Source of the DNA: Oscillospiraceae bacterium
GTDB taxonomy: Bacteria; Bacillota; Clostridia; Oscillospirales; JAAYXM01
Length of the DNA stretch: 64,000 nt
Assembly: GCA_015068085.1 (NCBI GenBank)
Contig: SVLF01000007.1
Coordinates: 1 to 64,000, forward strand
Reading direction: 5' to 3'
Shown here: piece after piece, positions 26,348-60,100 of the stretch
How positions within the stretch are numbered: the stretch's first letter is position 1
Layout: each line of letters starts with the position of its first letter
Notes under the pieces: generated by a model
The model's database searches: none
What the model was told of the DNA's origin: nothing
The model's input: the letters and a program-made list of their open reading frames with translations, nothing else
Program-made: the position numbers and the translations under genes

Positions 26348-26427
<80 letters not shown>

Positions 26428-26530
26428 CCTTGGAATCATTGCGGTTTCAAGGTGTTTTGCTATTTGTGGCGTGCTTTTTCAGAGCGCTTGAATGATTGTA
26501 AAATTTCTATTATTCAAGAGGTGCAGATTT

Positions 26531-27463
26531 ATGGCAAGAATTATGATGACAACAAGCGCAAATCCAACAGCCGAACAAGTGTTTTCTTTCTTCATCTCAG
26601 CGACTGCCGCACGAGGTGCAAAAGACAAAACACTTGACACTTACAAACAGCATTTTCGCTCTATTTCCAAACGACTTGATACCTCAATTCCAATAGGCAA
26701 TCTGACAAAAGTGCATTTGGATGATATGATATTCGAAATGCGAGCGGGCGGTCTTTCTTCACGCTCAATAAACAGTTATACACGCACTCTGAAAACTTTT
26801 CTCTCTTGGTGCAACTCTGAAGGATACACTTCTTTGAACATTCCCATTTATAAAGCAAGCGAATCCACAAAAGAAACATACTCGGATGATGAATTGTTGA
26901 TACTTTTAAAGAAACCAAGAGCGGGATGTAACTTTTGCGAATACCGCAATTGGGTTATTATCAATTTTCTTTTAAATAGCGGTTGTCGCGCGGCAACCGT
27001 GCGCAACATTCAGATACAAGATGTATATTTGCAAAATCGTCAGATACTGCTGAGGCATACGAAAAATGGCAAACTGCAAACAATCCCGCTCTGCATGGAA
27101 ATGGTTTCTATTCTCCAAGAGTATATGCAGATACGCGGTGGAAGCAGGACTGATTATCTGTTCTGCAATGAGTTCGGCAATTATCTTTCCGAAAGTGCCT
27201 TGCGGCAGACAATTGTAAAATACAATAGGAAAAGAGGAATAAAGCGAACCTCCATCCATGCATTTCGGCATACCTTCGCGCGAAAGTATCTTGTAGATTG
27301 CGGCGGCGATGCTTTCACATTGCAGAGGATATTAGGACACTCAACTCTTGCAATGACAAAGCATTATTGCAACATTTTTAATTCAGATATTGTTGATAAA
27401 TACGAAAGTCTTTCACCACTTGCACAACTTAAAAAAACGAGCGGGAAGTATATCAAAAAATAA
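26531..27463 (+). CDS. int: tyrosine recombinase/integrase
   Basis: NSGCRAATV..HAFRHTFARKYL..LQRILGHSTLAMTKHY catalytic pattern. Confidence 0.93.
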   Translation: MARIMMTTSANPTAEQVFSFFISATAARGAKDKTLDTYKQHFRSISKRLDTSIPIGNLTKVHLDDMIFEMRAGGLSSRSINSYTRTLKTFLSWCNSEGYTSLNIPIYKASESTKETYSDDELLILLKKPRAGCNFCEYRNWVIINFLLNSGCRAATVRNIQIQDVYLQNRQILLRHTKNGKLQTIPLCMEMVSILQEYMQIRGGSRTDYLFCNEFGNYLSESALRQTIVKYNRKRGIKRTSIHAFRHTFARKYLVDCGGDAFTLQRILGHSTLAMTKHYCNIFNSDIVDKYESLSPLAQLKKTSGKYIKK

Positions 27464-27505
27464 CGAAAAAGACGCAAGAAACAATCAAGTTTCCTGCGTC
27501 TTTTT
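27464..27505. terminator. bidirectional terminator between integrase and PIN-like gene
   Basis: aaaaagacgcaagaaac..gtttcctgcgtcttttt. Confidence 0.7.
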
Positions 27506-27540
27506 AACATCATTCATACATCTTTTATGCAACAAATCAC

Positions 27541-29466
27541 CTAAAATCTCTCTTTGATTTTCTCTGTTAAATATTCAATAATCTTTCCATATAAAAATCC
27601 CGCAAGTCCTCCACAGAGAATAGTCAAAAGACCGATAGCTATTCCTTTCGCTGTAAATGTCATATAATTATTTTGCACAAAAATAATTACCAACAGAAGT
27701 GCCACATACGGAACACCAAAAACGAGACCCGCAAACACATTGGCAAGAGTTCTTGAAAATGACTCTCTTTGAGATTCAACTTTTCTTTCCAGTGTTTGAT
27801 TTTTCTCAGACACATCCATTTTATCTGTTATAGCTCGACTGAGCTTATCTTTAGTTTTTTGATGTTCTTCCTTTTCTGTTTCATATTTCTTGTCTCCTTC
27901 AAACTGCGCATCCGCCTTAATCTGAACATAAACCTCTCGCCATGTTTGATCAGTAAACTGAGAATAATCCCCCGACGTAGCATCAAGAAGTTTTGTTTCT
28001 ACAATAGGATGTGACCTCAAAAACAAAAATTTCTCTTCCGTTAAGCCTTCCGCCTTTTTTTGATAAGCCTTATCCAAGGAAAGGTTAAAACTGGCAATCA
28101 TTTGAGGCGTAGGACGCAACAAAGCTCTACAATCTGCTAACAACTTAAAACTACTATAGTCGTTATTTTCATCACCATAATCCATCCAAAGAAGAGTACC
28201 AAAAATATCAGCTGTGATACTTGTCGGTATTATACCCTTAGCTGGCTCTTCTTCGCACGCAATATCTTTGCTAACCTTCGCAATTACTCTATTTGTTGTT
28301 ATAAATATAGCCTTTGCAGTTTTAATACTAGTTGATAGTGTTCCTCTTCTTTTTCTTTGAGTCATCACTATTGATCTGACATCCGTTCTAATACTATTGT
28401 CATAAAGTCCTTCAGTAGAATATTTACTATCTCTCTCACTATATTCGTTTTTTATTGCATCGGATATCTTTTCTTCGTCGGCTTGGAATTGATTTTCCTC
28501 TACCAAGTAGCTGGCATCATATCGAGCGATCCCCATAAGGTTAAGCATACCCTCAACTTCACCGATATATTCAACCATTTCCTCAGACGTTTTATCAGAA
28601 TTACGGAAAAACTGTGCCACCTTATTAGCTTTTGCGGGGTCATAGTCATCACGTTGCGCCCATCTCGCCGCGCGCTCCATTATTCCTAACACTTCCTGTA
28701 AGTTATGGTCAAACACAAAGAGAGACATCCCCACTTTCTTCGCTTTTTCAACGATATATTGGTATGCATCTTTTCTTTCAAGCGTATCCATCCCCAAAAG
28801 CGCAAAAATCATAGGAGTGTCTAAGAATACTTGCAAATCAGATTGTTGTGCAGAATCTGTATTTGAATAAAACAAAGTCGCCTTTGCAATATTTGCCATA
28901 CACAAGCCTTCAACAAAAGCGTGTCGTTCAACATCGCGTTCTCTTAAATCCAGAATATATTTACACCAATGATATACGAACTGACTATTTGTAGCGTCTA
29001 TATCCCCAATATGATTAAAAATAACATGGTCATCATAATCATCTAAAAAGGCAGTGATGTTTTTTTCTATTTCTTTTTCATTCAAACTATAATTATGTTT
29101 TTTTGCATATTCGCCAAAATCTGCAATAAGCGTTTTCCACTTACTTAGAAAACCATCGTCTGAAAGACGCAGTTTCCTCATCTCTGAAATATCCGGAACA
29201 TAGCTTCCTTTTACCCTTTTCACCATCTTCCTATCCATAGCTTCACCCAACACCTGTCGAACAAAAGTAGGCTGGAACGTTGCGTTGTATTTTTCTTTCA
29301 ACTTAGAACAAATGATACTTACATCAACAACTTCCATTCCCTCATCAACTATTATAGTTGCTATGAATGGTAAATATTTGTCGAGAATATTCGAAGAAAC
29401 AAAATTACTTTTCATCATCGCATATGCCTTAACAAACTGATCTGTCATCATATGTACCTCCACCAT
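27541..29466 (-). CDS. large PIN-like domain protein with C-terminal transmembrane helices
   Basis: LQVFLDTPMIFALLG (PIN motif 1-like), AKAIFITTNRVIAKV (T/N motif), coiled coil, two hydrophobic segments GLVFGVPYVALLLVIIFV and GIAIGLLTILCGGLAGFLYG. Confidence 0.6.
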   Translation of the reverse strand: MVEVHMMTDQFVKAYAMMKSNFVSSNILDKYLPFIATIIVDEGMEVVDVSIICSKLKEKYNATFQPTFVRQVLGEAMDRKMVKRVKGSYVPDISEMRKLRLSDDGFLSKWKTLIADFGEYAKKHNYSLNEKEIEKNITAFLDDYDDHVIFNHIGDIDATNSQFVYHWCKYILDLRERDVERHAFVEGLCMANIAKATLFYSNTDSAQQSDLQVFLDTPMIFALLGMDTLERKDAYQYIVEKAKKVGMSLFVFDHNLQEVLGIMERAARWAQRDDYDPAKANKVAQFFRNSDKTSEEMVEYIGEVEGMLNLMGIARYDASYLVEENQFQADEEKISDAIKNEYSERDSKYSTEGLYDNSIRTDVRSIVMTQRKRRGTLSTSIKTAKAIFITTNRVIAKVSKDIACEEEPAKGIIPTSITADIFGTLLWMDYGDENNDYSSFKLLADCRALLRPTPQMIASFNLSLDKAYQKKAEGLTEEKFLFLRSHPIVETKLLDATSGDYSQFTDQTWREVYVQIKADAQFEGDKKYETEKEEHQKTKDKLSRAITDKMDVSEKNQTLERKVESQRESFSRTLANVFAGLVFGVPYVALLLVIIFVQNNYMTFTAKGIAIGLLTILCGGLAGFLYGKIIEYLTEKIKERF

Positions 29467-29555
29467 TTTTTAAAACTCCGCCATACCAAGCAGCATCTTT
29501 TTCACAATAATATTTTACAGAACTTTTTACAAAAATGCAAATGGTTTTATCTCGC

Positions 29556-30719
29556 TCAATACATTTTTCTCACGTTTTCTACATAACTCTTGAACTTCTC
29601 CACAACATCATCCGGAGCAACTATTTTCACCTTTTTACCAAATCCCAAGAGCCAACCGAAGAACTGATTGCTGATTTCTACTTTTGCGGTAACTGTGAAA
29701 TGGCTGTCATCGCATTTGGAATATTGAGCTTCCTTTGTACCGAAACGTTCAATGGCGGTATCCAATAGAGGATTGATAAAACGCAAGGTAATTCGCTTTT
29801 CTTCACCGCTATACATATTGAAGGCTCTTCGAGTGTATGTTGTCAGGTCTATCTTCTTGAACTCTGCTTCTCCGTCTCTTGGTTCTCCGGTATATCGGAT
29901 GTCTTTCATTCTGTCAACGCGGTATGTCCATAACTTCTTCTTTTTATCATCAAATGCAAGCAAATAATAATTGCCGTCATTTATCAAAAGTTTGTATGGA
30001 CTTACGATATATCTTTCGCCTTTTCTTCGGTCTATCTGTTGGTTTACATCGTCAATTGTATGCTTCAAGTATTTAAAGCTGATCTTTTCCGGCTCGTGTG
30101 CATCATCTCCGTTTCGATAACTCATAGCATCATTGATTGTCATAACGTTTGTGAAAACATTTTTGTTTGCGGTTCTCGCCCTATCGACCATAAATGCATC
30201 GTGCCTGAGATTTTCTGCCTGATGCTCGCTTACCAACCCACAAACCACATCAATCAATTGTCTCACTTTCGATTCCGAAACAAATTTTGCCGTATAAACA
30301 CATTCAGCCAAAAGACGAATATCATTTAACTCAAATTTGCGTTGTTTTACATAAAAGCCTTTTGAATGTTTGTCATAAACAATTAATTTGAGTTCGTCAA
30401 ACTCATCATCTGCAAGCATTTCTGCCGCTTCTGAAATCTCGCAATCTTCCTGAAATGCCAATGCCACCTTGTTTATATCTTCAATATCGCGGTAAATTGA
30501 CCTTCTTTCTGCATAAACACCGTAATCAGCGAGAAACCCTTCAATATCGTATGCAGATACTGTGTGATTTTCATCTGTCGCAACCAACAGATATTGAAGA
30601 ACAAGATACGGTTTAAGTTTTTGGTTTTCTCTCTTGCCATGGTGTGCTTCTACCTTACCGTTTAAATGCTTGTCTGCTTTGCGGTAAAACTTTTTATATT
30701 TAATTTCCTCCACGTACAT
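29556..30719 (-). CDS. WYL-domain transcriptional regulator
   Basis: N-terminal wHTH plus KISFKYL..RYIVSPYKLLINDGNYYLLAFDDKKKKLWTYRVDRMKDI WYL core and C-terminal extension. Confidence 0.85.
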   Translation of the reverse strand: MYVEEIKYKKFYRKADKHLNGKVEAHHGKRENQKLKPYLVLQYLLVATDENHTVSAYDIEGFLADYGVYAERRSIYRDIEDINKVALAFQEDCEISEAAEMLADDEFDELKLIVYDKHSKGFYVKQRKFELNDIRLLAECVYTAKFVSESKVRQLIDVVCGLVSEHQAENLRHDAFMVDRARTANKNVFTNVMTINDAMSYRNGDDAHEPEKISFKYLKHTIDDVNQQIDRRKGERYIVSPYKLLINDGNYYLLAFDDKKKKLWTYRVDRMKDIRYTGEPRDGEAEFKKIDLTTYTRRAFNMYSGEEKRITLRFINPLLDTAIERFGTKEAQYSKCDDSHFTVTAKVEISNQFFGWLLGFGKKVKIVAPDDVVEKFKSYVENVRKMY

Positions 30720-30726
30720 CACTCCA

Positions 30727-30746
30727 ATTGAAAGTGCACTTTCAAT
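30727..30746. promoter_or_regulatory. palindromic operator candidate of the WYL operon
   Basis: 20-bp perfect palindrome ATTGAAAGTGCACTTTCAAT between extended -10 (TGTTATAAT, - strand) and SD/start. Confidence 0.65.
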
Positions 30747-30791
30747 AATTATAACATATAAGCTTCAAAAATGGAATCTTATTCATTTTTA

Positions 30792-30820
30792 TTGATTTAT
30801 TTTCCTAAAAGTGATATAAT
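30792..30820 (+). promoter_or_regulatory. promoter of structured RNA
   Basis: TTGATT-N17-TATAAT; predicted TSS near 30827. Confidence 0.7.
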
Positions 30821-30826
30821 ACAATC

Positions 30827-31049
30827 ACCACATACAACAATTTAATATCAATGACAAGATATTTCTACAAATATCTCTATTTGTGTTACACATTTATATG
30901 ATGTTACACGGCAATATTAAGTTTGTTAAAAACGCAGGCTGAAATATGTTTTGTCGTGTGATATTCATATTAGATTGTTGTGTGTGGTAACCAGTAATCA
31001 AGCCGCGTTTTTGATGCGTGGTGCAGATTTCTGTTGCCACGCATTTTTT
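30827..31049 (+). ncRNA. candidate structured RNA with long closing stem, pseudoknot and terminator
   Basis: 25-nt closing helix 30827-30851/30964-30988 (24 pairs incl. 2 G-U), hairpin 30857-30876, stem 30906-30914/30951-30959, pseudoknot 30928-30940/31001-31012, terminator 31014-31049. Confidence 0.65.
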
Positions 31050-31119
31050 ATTTGCGTGAGACTTTAGAAAGGAGTTCTTTATTCTTAATTTTAATAATCA
31101 TATTGAAAGGTGGCTTGAC

Positions 31120-31266
31120 ATGAAAACAATTAAATTTAAAGAAAGCGATAAAGACTTGATTCAAAGAATCAAAGAATATCAAAATGCACATGGCTTATCA
31201 TCGTTTGTGGCAGCAGTTCGCAAACTATGTGCAGATGCCCTTGCAATAGAGAAAATAAGACATTAA
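31120..31266 (+). CDS. small ribbon-helix-helix-like protein (48 aa)
   Basis: MKTIKFKESDKDLIQRIKEYQNAHGLSSFVAAVRKLCADALAIEKIRH; SD gaaaggtgg; not in the ORF track because of length. Confidence 0.6.
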   Translation: MKTIKFKESDKDLIQRIKEYQNAHGLSSFVAAVRKLCADALAIEKIRH

Positions 31267-31281
31267 AAGGAGAAATATCAA

Positions 31282-32640
31282 ATGAAAAAGAAAATTATAT
31301 CACTTACCCTTAGTGTTGCTATGTTTTTGAGTGTGTTCCCAACAACATTTGCAACGGGAGGCAGTCTCACAAATTTCAAGAAGAAAAACACATATGTTCC
31401 AGGTCAGTTTTCTGACGTTGCTCCTGGTGCATGGTATGAAAATACAGTGGCTTCTGCTTACGAAACCGGACTGATCAAGGGCTCATCCGAAACGAGCTTT
31501 AACCCAAATGGGAACATAACAATGGCAGAATCGCTCGCTTTGGCTTCCAGAATTCATAATATATATAACGGCGGAAGTGGTGAGTTTACCCAAGGATCAC
31601 CATGGTATAAGGTTTACGTTGATTATGTAGTGAAAAACGATATATATGAATTGGCATCACAGCATTCCCATTCACAGTTAAATGCAAATTGGTCGCGTGA
31701 AAATTTTATTAGATGTTTATCAAAAGCAATTCCTGAAGAAGAATTGAACGAAATTAACAGCATTCCGGATGGTTCTATTCCTGATGTTTTTTGGAAAAAT
31801 GATGAAATTTATTCTCTTTATAGAGCAGGAATCATTACCGGTAATGATGAAAAAGGAACGTTCAATGCAAATTCCCCAATCAAGCGCTGTGAAGTAGCAA
31901 CAATTGTTGCGCGGTTGATAGACAAATCGAAGAGAGTAAAGTTTTCCTTGTCCGGTGGTCTTGTGATGCCTGACTCTATCACAATAGAAGAACAAAAAGA
32001 CGCCATTAACATAGGTAACAGAATATATTTGCATGCAACCGTATTACCGGACACTTTACGCACTAACAAGACTTTGGTATGGTCATCCGATAATCCAACG
32101 GTTGCCTCAGTAGATGACGATGGGGATGTAACAGGGTTGACACCTGGAGAAGCAAACATAACCGCGACAACGGTAAACGGACTTTCTTATACAGTACGCG
32201 TTAAGGTAATGGATCTCCGTCCGAAATTTACATATGATTCAGTAAAAGAATTAGCCATAGCATGTTCCGAAGCAGGCGATGCTGGTATCCGAATGTCCAA
32301 CTATCTCTCAGCAGCACTGGATGATCTGCTCGACAGAGAAAACATCTATTTGCGTTATTCTATGATAAAGAAAGAAGCGGAGAGTGTATCATGGGATTTG
32401 ACAACAGCTATCAAAATACTCAAAAAACACGTCCCGGTAAAATTAACAGACGGTAGCACATTGTTGGAGCTGGCTGAAAAGGCTCTTTCAGCCAATGAAA
32501 AAATAATAGCATTAGAAATGACTGAGGACACAGCTATTGAACGTTCTATAGAACTTTACGATTTGGTTAGCGACTATCTTATCCATACTTCAGCTATCAT
32601 AGGCATCGTCGCGGATATGTCAGCCAATGTTGTCAAATAG
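31282..32640 (+). CDS. secreted SLH-domain and Big2 Ig-like protein
   Basis: signal peptide, FSDVAPGAWYENTVASAYETGLIKGSSETSFNPNGNITMAE SLH repeats, WSSDNPTVASVDDDGDVTGLTPGEANITAT Big2. Confidence 0.85.
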   Translation: MKKKIISLTLSVAMFLSVFPTTFATGGSLTNFKKKNTYVPGQFSDVAPGAWYENTVASAYETGLIKGSSETSFNPNGNITMAESLALASRIHNIYNGGSGEFTQGSPWYKVYVDYVVKNDIYELASQHSHSQLNANWSRENFIRCLSKAIPEEELNEINSIPDGSIPDVFWKNDEIYSLYRAGIITGNDEKGTFNANSPIKRCEVATIVARLIDKSKRVKFSLSGGLVMPDSITIEEQKDAINIGNRIYLHATVLPDTLRTNKTLVWSSDNPTVASVDDDGDVTGLTPGEANITATTVNGLSYTVRVKVMDLRPKFTYDSVKELAIACSEAGDAGIRMSNYLSAALDDLLDRENIYLRYSMIKKEAESVSWDLTTAIKILKKHVPVKLTDGSTLLELAEKALSANEKIIALEMTEDTAIERSIELYDLVSDYLIHTSAIIGIVADMSANVVK

Positions 32641-33398: not shown

Positions 33399-34058
33399 CT
33401 AATCCAAATGAGCAAGAATTAGTTGTTCATCGCAATCCATACATTTGATTCTGACTTCCTTTGTCGCTCTGACACTCATTCCGCAACAAGGACAAACGTA
33501 TTTTCTCGTGCTACTCTTCTTTCGTGGTGTTTGTCCGTTGTCTGAATTGCCGTTGTGCGTTCCGCTTCCACCAATCTGTGGTGCGTAAAAATCGTTTCGG
33601 CAAATTCTTATCTCAGGCAATTCTTTTTCCATACAGAACTCAAGCAACTCATCGCTCGGTGAAGTTCTCGACCATCCGTAGGTGTCGTGATGCGTGACCG
33701 CAAGACCGCACTCCTCAGCTTTTATTTTAAACTTTCGATTGTGGTATGTATTTCCTCTGCTACAATCTTTTATGTTGTTGATATCATTGTAGTAATGTAT
33801 CATTTCGTGCAAGAGAGTTGCAACAATTTCTTCTATTGGTCTGGAAAGCGTTCCTGCACCGAGGTTAATTTCTCTGACACCCTTTTCGTTGTCCAAACTC
33901 CAAGCATCATAAAGTGTGTAATGTCCGTATGCTTTCGGAGTTGACTGAATTGTTATCACCGGTCTTGAAAGTGCACTTTCAAAATATCGCTCATTCAAAA
34001 GCTGAAATATTGAATTGAGGTATCCTGCTACGCGATTATAGGTTGTCATTTCTTTCAT
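33399..34058 (-). CDS. SprT-like zinc metalloprotease family protein
   Basis: LLHEMIHYYND (HExxH), C-terminal CxxC zinc ribbon YVCPCCGMSVRATKEVRIKCMDCDEQL. Confidence 0.82.
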   Translation of the reverse strand: MKEMTTYNRVAGYLNSIFQLLNERYFESALSRPVITIQSTPKAYGHYTLYDAWSLDNEKGVREINLGAGTLSRPIEEIVATLLHEMIHYYNDINNIKDCSRGNTYHNRKFKIKAEECGLAVTHHDTYGWSRTSPSDELLEFCMEKELPEIRICRNDFYAPQIGGSGTHNGNSDNGQTPRKKSSTRKYVCPCCGMSVRATKEVRIKCMDCDEQLILAHLD

Positions 34059-37412: not shown

Positions 37413-37462
37413 AATGGCATTCAAGAGGTCATGGGTTCGATCCCCACCGTCTCCACCAAACA
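37413..37462. repeat. right att repeat (tRNA-Ala 3' part)
   Basis: 50 bp identical to 26378-26427. Confidence 0.95.
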
Positions 37463-37472
37463 GAAAACGTAC

Positions 37473-37597
37473 CATCCGTAAGGTTGGTACGTTTTTTGTT
37501 TTGGTGTTACGCGAGACGGTGAGGGATCGAACAGGACGGCGCTCCGCAGAGCGCAAAAAGGGTGCCGGTGGCACGCTTTTTAGTCCGCGGGTAGATC
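37473..37597. repeat. 125-bp direct repeat copy 1
   Basis: matches 37629-37753 with 2 mismatches seen by eye. Confidence 0.9.
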
Positions 37598-37628
37598 CCC
37601 AATGTAAGTTTACGAAGAACGCAAATGG

Positions 37629-37753
37629 CATCCGTAAGGTTGGTACGTTTTTTGTTTTGATGTTACGCGAGACGGTGAGGGAGCGAACAGGACGGCGCTC
37701 CGCAGAGCGCAAAAAGGGTGCCGGTGGCACGCTTTTTAGTCCGCGGGTAGATC
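37629..37753. repeat. 125-bp direct repeat copy 2
   Basis: matches 37473-37597. Confidence 0.9.
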
Positions 37754-37760
37754 TCCTGTG

Positions 37761-38699
37761 TTAAAACAGCTTATCATTGATCATATATATAGGCTTTGCC
37801 ATTTTACCTGTGGTATCTAAATTATATTTAGATTCAAAATATTTTATTATCTCTTCTTCGGATGGGAATTCTATCCATTGATATGGTTCCTGGAACGCTA
37901 ATTTTTCCAAAAGATATACAGAACCATCTTTTTCATATATCACTCCTGCATGATCCAGAAACAGAAACGGATCAGATTCATCTACGGTATTGTGCACAAC
38001 AAGACCGATAAATTTTAATTTGGAATTTTTAAATTGAATTCCTCTCTCCTTAAGAGCTTGCTCCAAAACCTTTTTTTGAACCTCTTTATCAGTTGATAAG
38101 CTTGTAGGTATTGGTGCATAAAAGTTTTCAAATGCCTTTAAATTTTCATCTGTCATATATTTAGCGGGCATCATTTCAAACGAATTACTGTCAAAAGCCA
38201 ATGTCCACATGGATGTTTTTTCAAAATCAGTGTTGTTTATCAGGATATCATCTCTCAACAATGTAAACACTGCCATTCTGCAACAAACACCAACAAAATC
38301 AGGATATTTTTGCTCCCATACGTCGTTTATCTCATAAGGGTCGTAATTCACTTTATCCAAAGTGTTCCAACCCTTCAAAACCGATTCGGGCGCAGTTTCA
38401 TTGTATATATTAACGTAGTTAATACAATCTTTAATATATGATTCTTTTATTCCTGCTTTTTCCAAATCCTTGCTAAGCTCTGATTGATCTTCTTCAGAAA
38501 TCAAGTTACTGAATTTCACCTCGGGATTTACATAGGGATCTGTTATCCCACTGGATCTCAGATCTTTCGCATATCCGCTTTGGTTTTTATCAGGACTGTT
38601 CTCCCCCAAATTATCTGAACAAGCAGAAAATAATGCTGTCACCATAACTGATATTAAAAATACACTCAAAATTCTTTCAGCACTTTTTAAAACCTTCAT
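37761..38699 (-). CDS. putative lipoprotein (DUF4300-like, tentative)
   Basis: lipobox VTALFSAC; start placed at MKVLKSAERILSV. Confidence 0.6.
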   Translation of the reverse strand: MKVLKSAERILSVFLISVMVTALFSACSDNLGENSPDKNQSGYAKDLRSSGITDPYVNPEVKFSNLISEEDQSELSKDLEKAGIKESYIKDCINYVNIYNETAPESVLKGWNTLDKVNYDPYEINDVWEQKYPDFVGVCCRMAVFTLLRDDILINNTDFEKTSMWTLAFDSNSFEMMPAKYMTDENLKAFENFYAPIPTSLSTDKEVQKKVLEQALKERGIQFKNSKLKFIGLVVHNTVDESDPFLFLDHAGVIYEKDGSVYLLEKLAFQEPYQWIEFPSEEEIIKYFESKYNLDTTGKMAKPIYMINDKLF

Positions 38700-59917: not shown

Positions 59918-60100
59918 TTTGTTTTCCTCCTTGAATTTTGTTTTTATTTTAAATGTATTTGCTACTTAATTTAGTTTGGTGTTGTAATTACAACACCAAA
60001 GGGCATATGCCCTTTCGGATGGAAGCTTTCCCCTCTCGTGTCATCCTGAGGCTTGCCGAAGGATCTCCCGCGCATCCCTCCACTCTCGAAAGAGAAGCTT

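What the first reader, a model, noticed from the sequence alone, without database searches (positions are those of the whole stretch)
27541..30753. WYL regulator + membrane-anchored PIN-like protein: candidate undescribed defence pair
Same-strand genes 89 nt apart inside an integrated element. The 641-aa protein reads as N-terminal winged-helix-like region, PIN-like core (FLDTPMIFALLG.., IFITTNRVIAKV.., ITADIFGTLLWMD), coiled coil and two C-terminal TM helices, the layout expected of a membrane-tethered RNase effector. WYL regulators are established companions of phage-defence operons (BrxR/CapW type). Cargo position in a small tRNA island fits. I know of no named system with this exact pair, but could not search.
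Basis: partly seen in the sequence, partly recalled or inferred. Interest (0 to 1): 0.72.

Follow-up and report, generated by a model that had tools for sequence, protein, structure and literature searches.

The report
Stand-alone membrane PIN nuclease, probable defence
A mobile element in this bacterium carries a gene for a membrane-anchored, probably RNA-cutting enzyme of an unnamed family, scattered across many bacterial phyla on plasmids, prophages and defence islands, where it probably kills or shuts down phage-infected cells; the regulator gene next to it belongs to the element rather than to the enzyme.

Summary
Both genes are real and placed as described: WYL regulator 29556-30722 (-) and a 641-aa protein 27541-29466 (-), inside an 11-kb tRNA-Ala element with 50-bp att repeats.

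The PIN reading holds. An AlphaFold model of residues 200-445 (pTM 0.81) has only PIN domains as its seven best PDB matches. D216, E258, D362, T390 and N392 are conserved across 21 divergent homologues. An N-terminal winged helix and a C-terminal two-TM hairpin are supported too.

The 'pair' does not hold. None of about 22 other homologue loci has a WYL gene nearby, and none of about 34 WYL-relative loci has a PIN-TM gene nearby (many with only 1.5 kb of flank). The WYL gene recurs in sister elements carrying type I or type III restriction systems. In a congeneric genome the integrase end is 98.6% identical up to 8 bp from the PIN stop codon, where a different gene takes over.

So this is one exchangeable cargo gene of an unnamed single-gene family, found beside R-M, GajA-like, GmrSD-HEPN and CBASS genes, and at the P2 fun(Z) defence locus in E. 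coli. A palindrome in the WYL promoter fits autorepression. Defence function and RNase activity are inferred. Identity with DS-3, a validated one-protein PIN system, could not be tested.

The parts
26348..26423 (+). tRNA-Ala(GGC), integration target
   Evidence: ARAGORN; Rfam
26378..26427 (.). attL, 50-bp perfect direct repeat (3' part of the tRNA)
26492..27463 (+). tyrosine integrase, 323 aa
   Evidence: Pfam Phage_integrase 6e-28; about 34% identical to integrases of sister elements; 320/323 aa identical in a congener
27466..27505 (.). terminator-like hairpin between the convergent integrase and PIN genes
   Evidence: consensus match only
27541..29466 (-). 641-aa wHTH - PIN - coiled coil - 2 TM protein (likely start 29451)
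28132..28869 (-). PIN core, residues 200-445; D216, E258, D362, T390, N392
   Evidence: AF2 pLDDT 80.5, pTM 0.81; Foldseek top hits all PIN
29556..30722 (-). WYL-WCX transcriptional regulator, 388 aa (likely start 30713)
   Evidence: Pfam WYL 5e-11, WCX 3e-8; start
30727..30746 (.). perfect 20-bp palindrome ATTGAAAGTGCACTTTCAAT, 1 nt after an extended -10 (TGTTATAAT) of the WYL promoter: probable operator
   Evidence: 18-bp core occurs exactly twice in the 3.17-Mb genome
33964..33983 (.). second copy of the palindrome (18/20), inside the SprT-like gene of the same element
37413..37462 (.). attR, right end of the element

Best explanation
The 641-aa protein is a stand-alone, membrane-tethered PIN-domain ribonuclease that acts as an abortive-infection-type defence effector, carried as exchangeable cargo in the slot next to the integrase of a small tRNA-Ala integrative element. 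Supported by computation: the fold, the conserved acidic site, membrane anchoring by a C-terminal two-helix hairpin, mobile distribution, defence-type neighbours, and exchange of cargo at this site. Inferred: at rest the PIN domain is held inactive within the protein (no antitoxin gene is present); the N-terminal winged helix or the family-specific helical regions sense a phage signal near the membrane; the activated PIN site then cleaves RNA (tRNA or rRNA most likely), stopping growth. The WYL protein is the element's own regulator. It most likely represses its own promoter by binding the 20-bp palindrome beside the -10 box, so the downstream cargo is read at a low level until the WYL/WCX domains bind a damage- or infection-related ligand.
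For: PIN: Foldseek of the core model gives 2fe1, 1v8o, 1w8i, 7vwo, 3zvk and 7og5 at the top, prob 0.97-1.00; full model also matches a viral 'PIN like domain' protein, prob 1.00, and BlaI winged helix, prob 0.93. Conserved D/E/D/T-N; Pfam PIN_3 in 2 of 12 homologues, best 3e-4. Two C-terminal hydrophobic segments in all 21 members. Defence context of homologues: 72 nt after hsdMSR, beside GmrSD_N + HEPN_MAE_28990, near a GajA-like gene, next to R-M, near CBASS genes, and between FI and G in a P2-like E. coli prophage, the position of P2 fun(Z), which PMC9519451 describes as a defence-enriched locus. Cargo exchange. Operator; CapW and BrxR bind such palindromes (PMC9122588, PMC9122601).
Against: No activity data. 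Foldseek E-values are weak (0.005 at best) although the ranking is consistent; TM-scores normalised to the PIN targets are about 0.5-0.6. Proximity to defence genes was judged without a background rate. The palindrome is not found in front of the related WYL genes. WYL and PIN could be transcribed separately; promoter-like matches around the 89-nt gap are no more than chance. The fourth acidic position is N in most members, so catalysis may differ from VapC.
Confidence: 0.55

Rival explanations
1. WYL + PIN-TM is a genuine two-gene defence system in which the WYL protein controls or inhibits the nuclease.
For: Same strand, 89 nt apart, no terminator between on that strand; probable operator in front of the WYL gene.
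Against: No WYL gene near any of about 22 other PIN-TM loci and no PIN-TM near about 34 WYL-relative loci; the closest WYL relatives lie in integrative elements with R-M cargo.
Confidence: 0.12
2. The protein is a defence factor that does not work by RNA cleavage: a PIN-like scaffold that senses or binds phage nucleic acid at the membrane and acts through the TM hairpin (pore or depolarisation).
For: TM hairpin in all members; N or D at the fourth site, and one member (L015) with Q at the E258 position.
Against: D216, E258, D362 and T390 are kept in at least 90% of members that share little else (27% mean column identity).
Confidence: 0.18
3. The protein serves the mobile element itself (stability, exclusion of rival elements, or regulation of transfer) rather than phage defence.
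For: Most copies are on mobile elements, several beside integrases or resolvases.
Against: R-M, GmrSD and GajA-like neighbours in other genomes; exchange with R-M cargo in sister elements; carried by prophages of a different type.
Confidence: 0.13

Closest known systems
PIN-domain nucleases (VapC; RNA-free RNase P/HARP as structural matches)
   Same: Predicted alpha/beta PIN core, with conserved D/E/D and a T-x-N motif at the end of strand 4
   Different: No VapB-type antitoxin gene; PIN is embedded between a winged helix and a coiled coil with two TM helices; sequence identity to the top PIN structures about 8-14%
DS-3 of DefensePredictor (PMC13092281), a validated one-protein PIN defence system without antitoxin
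   Same: Single-gene, PIN-dependent defence with proposed auto-inhibition
   Different: Described as a PIN domain split between the N and C terminus, with no mention of a winged helix or TM helices; accession not in the main text, so identity could not be tested
CapW / BrxR WYL-domain repressors
   Same: WYL and WCX domains; about 20-bp palindrome next to the -10 box (PMC9122588, PMC9122601)
   Different: No close sequence match among solved WYL structures (best E 4e-5); belongs to an integrative-element backbone; palindrome not conserved in relatives
P2 Fun(Z), anti-T5 gene
   Same: An E. coli family member occupies the same locus between G and FI
   Different: No sequence match: tblastn of the E. 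coli member against all phage records, P2 included, found nothing at E <= 1

Membership tests
PIN nuclease superfamily | PIN alpha/beta fold | tested here: met
   AF2 core pTM 0.81, strands 212-215, 248-252, 313-316, 386-390, 416-418 in full-length numbering; PIN structures rank first
PIN nuclease superfamily | Conserved acidic active site (D, E, D, D/N) | tested here: met
   D216, E258, D362 and N392 in at least 90% of 21 homologues, T390 in all
PIN nuclease superfamily | RNA cleavage | not testable with these tools
   Needs an assay
VapBC toxin-antitoxin | Cognate small antitoxin gene next to the toxin | tested here: not met
   The neighbours are the integrase and the WYL gene; homologues stand alone
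BrxR/CapW-type WYL repressor | DNA-binding N-terminus + WYL + WCX | tested here: inconclusive
   WYL and WCX met; the N-terminal HTH gave no Pfam match and was not modelled
BrxR/CapW-type WYL repressor | Palindrome in its own promoter at the -10 region | tested here: met
   20-bp perfect palindrome 1 nt after the -10
BrxR/CapW-type WYL repressor | Represses a downstream defence operon | not testable with these tools
   Needs EMSA or reporter
Named defence systems in PADLOC 2.0 | Significant profile match of the effector | tested here: not met
   No match at E <= 1 for the window protein; only scattered weak hits in homologues
DS-3 (DefensePredictor) | Sequence homology to DS-3 | not testable with these tools
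   DS-3 sequence or accession is not in the main text; supplements not available
P2 Fun(Z) | Sequence homology to Fun(Z) | tested here: not met
   No hit in phages although P2 is held there

The most novel reading that the evidence does not exclude
An undescribed, cross-phylum family of single-protein abortive-infection systems: a winged-helix sensor, a PIN RNase and a membrane hairpin in one chain, working without an antitoxin and moved as one exchangeable gene between integrative elements, plasmids, prophages and defence islands, with expression placed under whatever regulator the host element carries (here a WYL repressor).
Probability: 0.4. Interest if true: 0.68.

Novelty: new variant of a known kind. 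Interest (0 to 1): 0.52.

Why it matters
If right, it adds a membrane-anchored PIN nuclease family, absent from the defence library searched here, to single-gene phage defence, with copies in E. coli P2-like prophages that can be tested at once in laboratory strains. It also shows a small integrative element whose WYL regulator stays while its neighbouring defence cargo changes, a natural test of how mobile elements control swapped-in toxic cargo.

Tried and rejected
Single-sequence profile searches of the 641-aa protein (Pfam, NCBIfam, PADLOC, PHROGs, PDB) gave nothing above threshold. IMG/VR scans with the single protein or with distant alignments found little; the seven-sequence alignment was too diverse to scan with. 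The genome-contig scan returned only 2 loci because its patterns were long. Homology to P2 Fun(Z) was considered and rejected. Conservation of the palindrome in sister WYL promoters was tested and not found. A full-length Foldseek search was noisy; the PIN-core model resolved it. Looking for the rest of the sister element in the congener G004 failed: contig C59 is chromosomal and carries only an unrelated conserved upstream block. No held paper mentions the accessions of the homologues.

Full report
Observation. The two genes are at the stated coordinates on the minus strand: a 641-aa ORF (27541-29466) and a 388-aa WYL protein (29556-30722), 89 nt apart. Likely starts are a little downstream, at 29451 and 30713, from Shine-Dalgarno spacing and alignment with homologues. 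They lie in an element bounded by a perfect 50-bp repeat of the tRNA-Ala 3' part (26378-26427 and 37413-37462, about 11 kb), with a tyrosine integrase next to the tRNA.

What the 641-aa protein is. Alone it matches no Pfam, NCBIfam, PADLOC, PHROG or PDB entry above threshold. tblastn against plasmids found mostly full-length relatives at 20-23% identity (E to 4e-26) in Enterococcus faecium, Sporosarcina, Pantoea, Klebsiella, Arthrobacter and Hymenobacter. More came from E. coli (2 of 5,426 genomes at DNA level), a Chloroflexi and a Clostridia genome, an IMG/VR phage contig, an IMG/VR P2-like contig and about 1-3% of genomes sampled from the window's class and phylum.

Fold. In a 21-member alignment with 27% mean column identity, T390 is invariant and D216, E258, D362, R373, N392, W427 and L442 are kept in at least 90%. 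AlphaFold2 of the full protein (pLDDT 71) shows an N-terminal helix-turn-helix with a beta wing, an alpha/beta core, a long helical stretch and a C-terminal helical hairpin. The core alone (residues 200-445) gives pLDDT 80.5 and pTM 0.81; its seven best PDB matches are all PIN domains, prob 0.97-1.00. D216 follows strand 1, E258 lies in the helix after strand 2, D362 in the helix before strand 4, and T390/N392 at the end of strand 4, as in PIN nucleases (the placing against the PIN fold is from general knowledge). Two of 12 members match Pfam PIN_3. All 21 members have two hydrophobic C-terminal segments.

Is it a pair with WYL? No. hmmsearch with profiles of both proteins over every fetched locus found no WYL gene near any other PIN-TM gene (mostly 8-10 kb each side) and no PIN-TM gene near any WYL relative (many WYL loci had only 1.5 kb of flank). 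The five closest WYL relatives (45-66% identity) come from elements of the same kind: three have the integrase adjacent and convergent (L082, L084, L085), one has an integrase elsewhere on the same contig (L081), one shows element genes upstream (L083); backbone genes are shared. Their cargo differs: type III R-M ending about 30 nt before the WYL gene (L083), type I R-M (L084). In a genome of the same genus (L094) the same tRNA-Ala carries an integrase 320/323 aa identical, and DNA identity of 98.6% stops at 27533, 8 bp before the PIN stop codon, where a different gene ending in two TM helices begins (it scores only 10 bits against the family profile, so a very distant member is not excluded). 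The WYL gene is thus an element gene and the PIN gene an exchangeable cargo. No WYL gene was found in that congener's incomplete genome closer than 35% identity in its genus.

Defence surroundings. Homologues lie 72 nt downstream of hsdM-hsdS-hsdR (L038), beside a GmrSD_N + HEPN_MAE_28990 pair (L036), near a GajA-like gene (L043), divergently beside an R-M operon (L007), near CBASS-type genes with a SAVED protein (L008), near PADLOC candidate PDC-S46 (L015), and in P2-like prophages (L020, L021, L086). In L020 the gene lies between FI and G, where P2 has fun(Z), a gene that blocks T5. PMC9519451 reports that locus as a second defence-enriched site of P2-like phages, holding three of its validated systems. 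No background rate was computed, so this is qualitative.

Regulation. A perfect 20-bp palindrome, ATTGAAAGTGCACTTTCAAT, begins 1 nt after an extended -10 (TGTTATAAT) of the WYL promoter. Its 18-bp core occurs exactly twice in the 3.17-Mb genome, both in this element (about 8e-5 expected from base composition); the second copy is inside the SprT-like gene. CapW binds 19-24-bp palindromes overlapping the -10 and represses CBASS (PMC9122588); BrxR binds inverted repeats just downstream of the -10 and has a second box (PMC9122601). Autorepression by the WYL protein with read-through into the cargo is the simplest reading, but it is not conserved in sister elements and is untested.

Mechanism. I commit to a membrane-tethered PIN RNase that is auto-inhibited and switched on by infection, giving abortive infection. 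Fold, active site, anchoring, mobility and context rest on computation; substrate, trigger, auto-inhibition and phage protection are inferred.

Novelty. PIN-dependent one-protein defence is known: DS-3, validated with catalytic mutants and without an antitoxin (PMC13092281). Its described layout (PIN split between N and C terminus) differs from this one, but its sequence could not be compared. I therefore rate the finding a new variant of a known kind, not a new kind.

Noticed in passing
window 33964-33983: Second copy of the WYL-promoter palindrome (perfect 18-bp core) inside the coding sequence of the SprT-like gene (codons F-E-S-A-L-S), 3.2 kb away; the only other exact copy in the genome.
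   Followed up: partly
window 30764-31081: A 318-bp block upstream of a secreted SLH/Ig-like protein gene recurs at 77% identity upstream of a secreted-protein gene in a congener (L107 7893-8213); no Rfam match.
   Followed up: partly
window 31282-32640: Predicted secreted protein with S-layer homology and Ig-like (Big_2) domains as further cargo; the sister element L081 has a different secreted protein at the same place.
   Followed up: no
L094 1-557: In a congener the PIN slot next to a 98.6%-identical integrase end holds a different gene ending in two TM helices, cut by the contig end; possibly another membrane effector.
   Followed up: partly
window 59975-60015: Perfect 26-bp palindrome TTTGGTGTTGTAATTACAACACCAAA overlapping by 3 bp a perfect 18-bp palindrome.
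   Followed up: no
window 37414-37764: At and just right of attR, the ORFs on both strands contain a repeated block of about 40 codons; looks like a non-coding direct repeat.
   Followed up: no
L042 6132-7849: A family member is broken by stop codons in genome G546, suggesting decay after acquisition.
   Followed up: no
window 31121-31267: Unlisted 48-aa ORF (MKTIKFKESDKDLIQRIKEYQ...) resembling a small ribbon-helix-helix protein between the WYL promoter region and the secreted protein.
   Followed up: no
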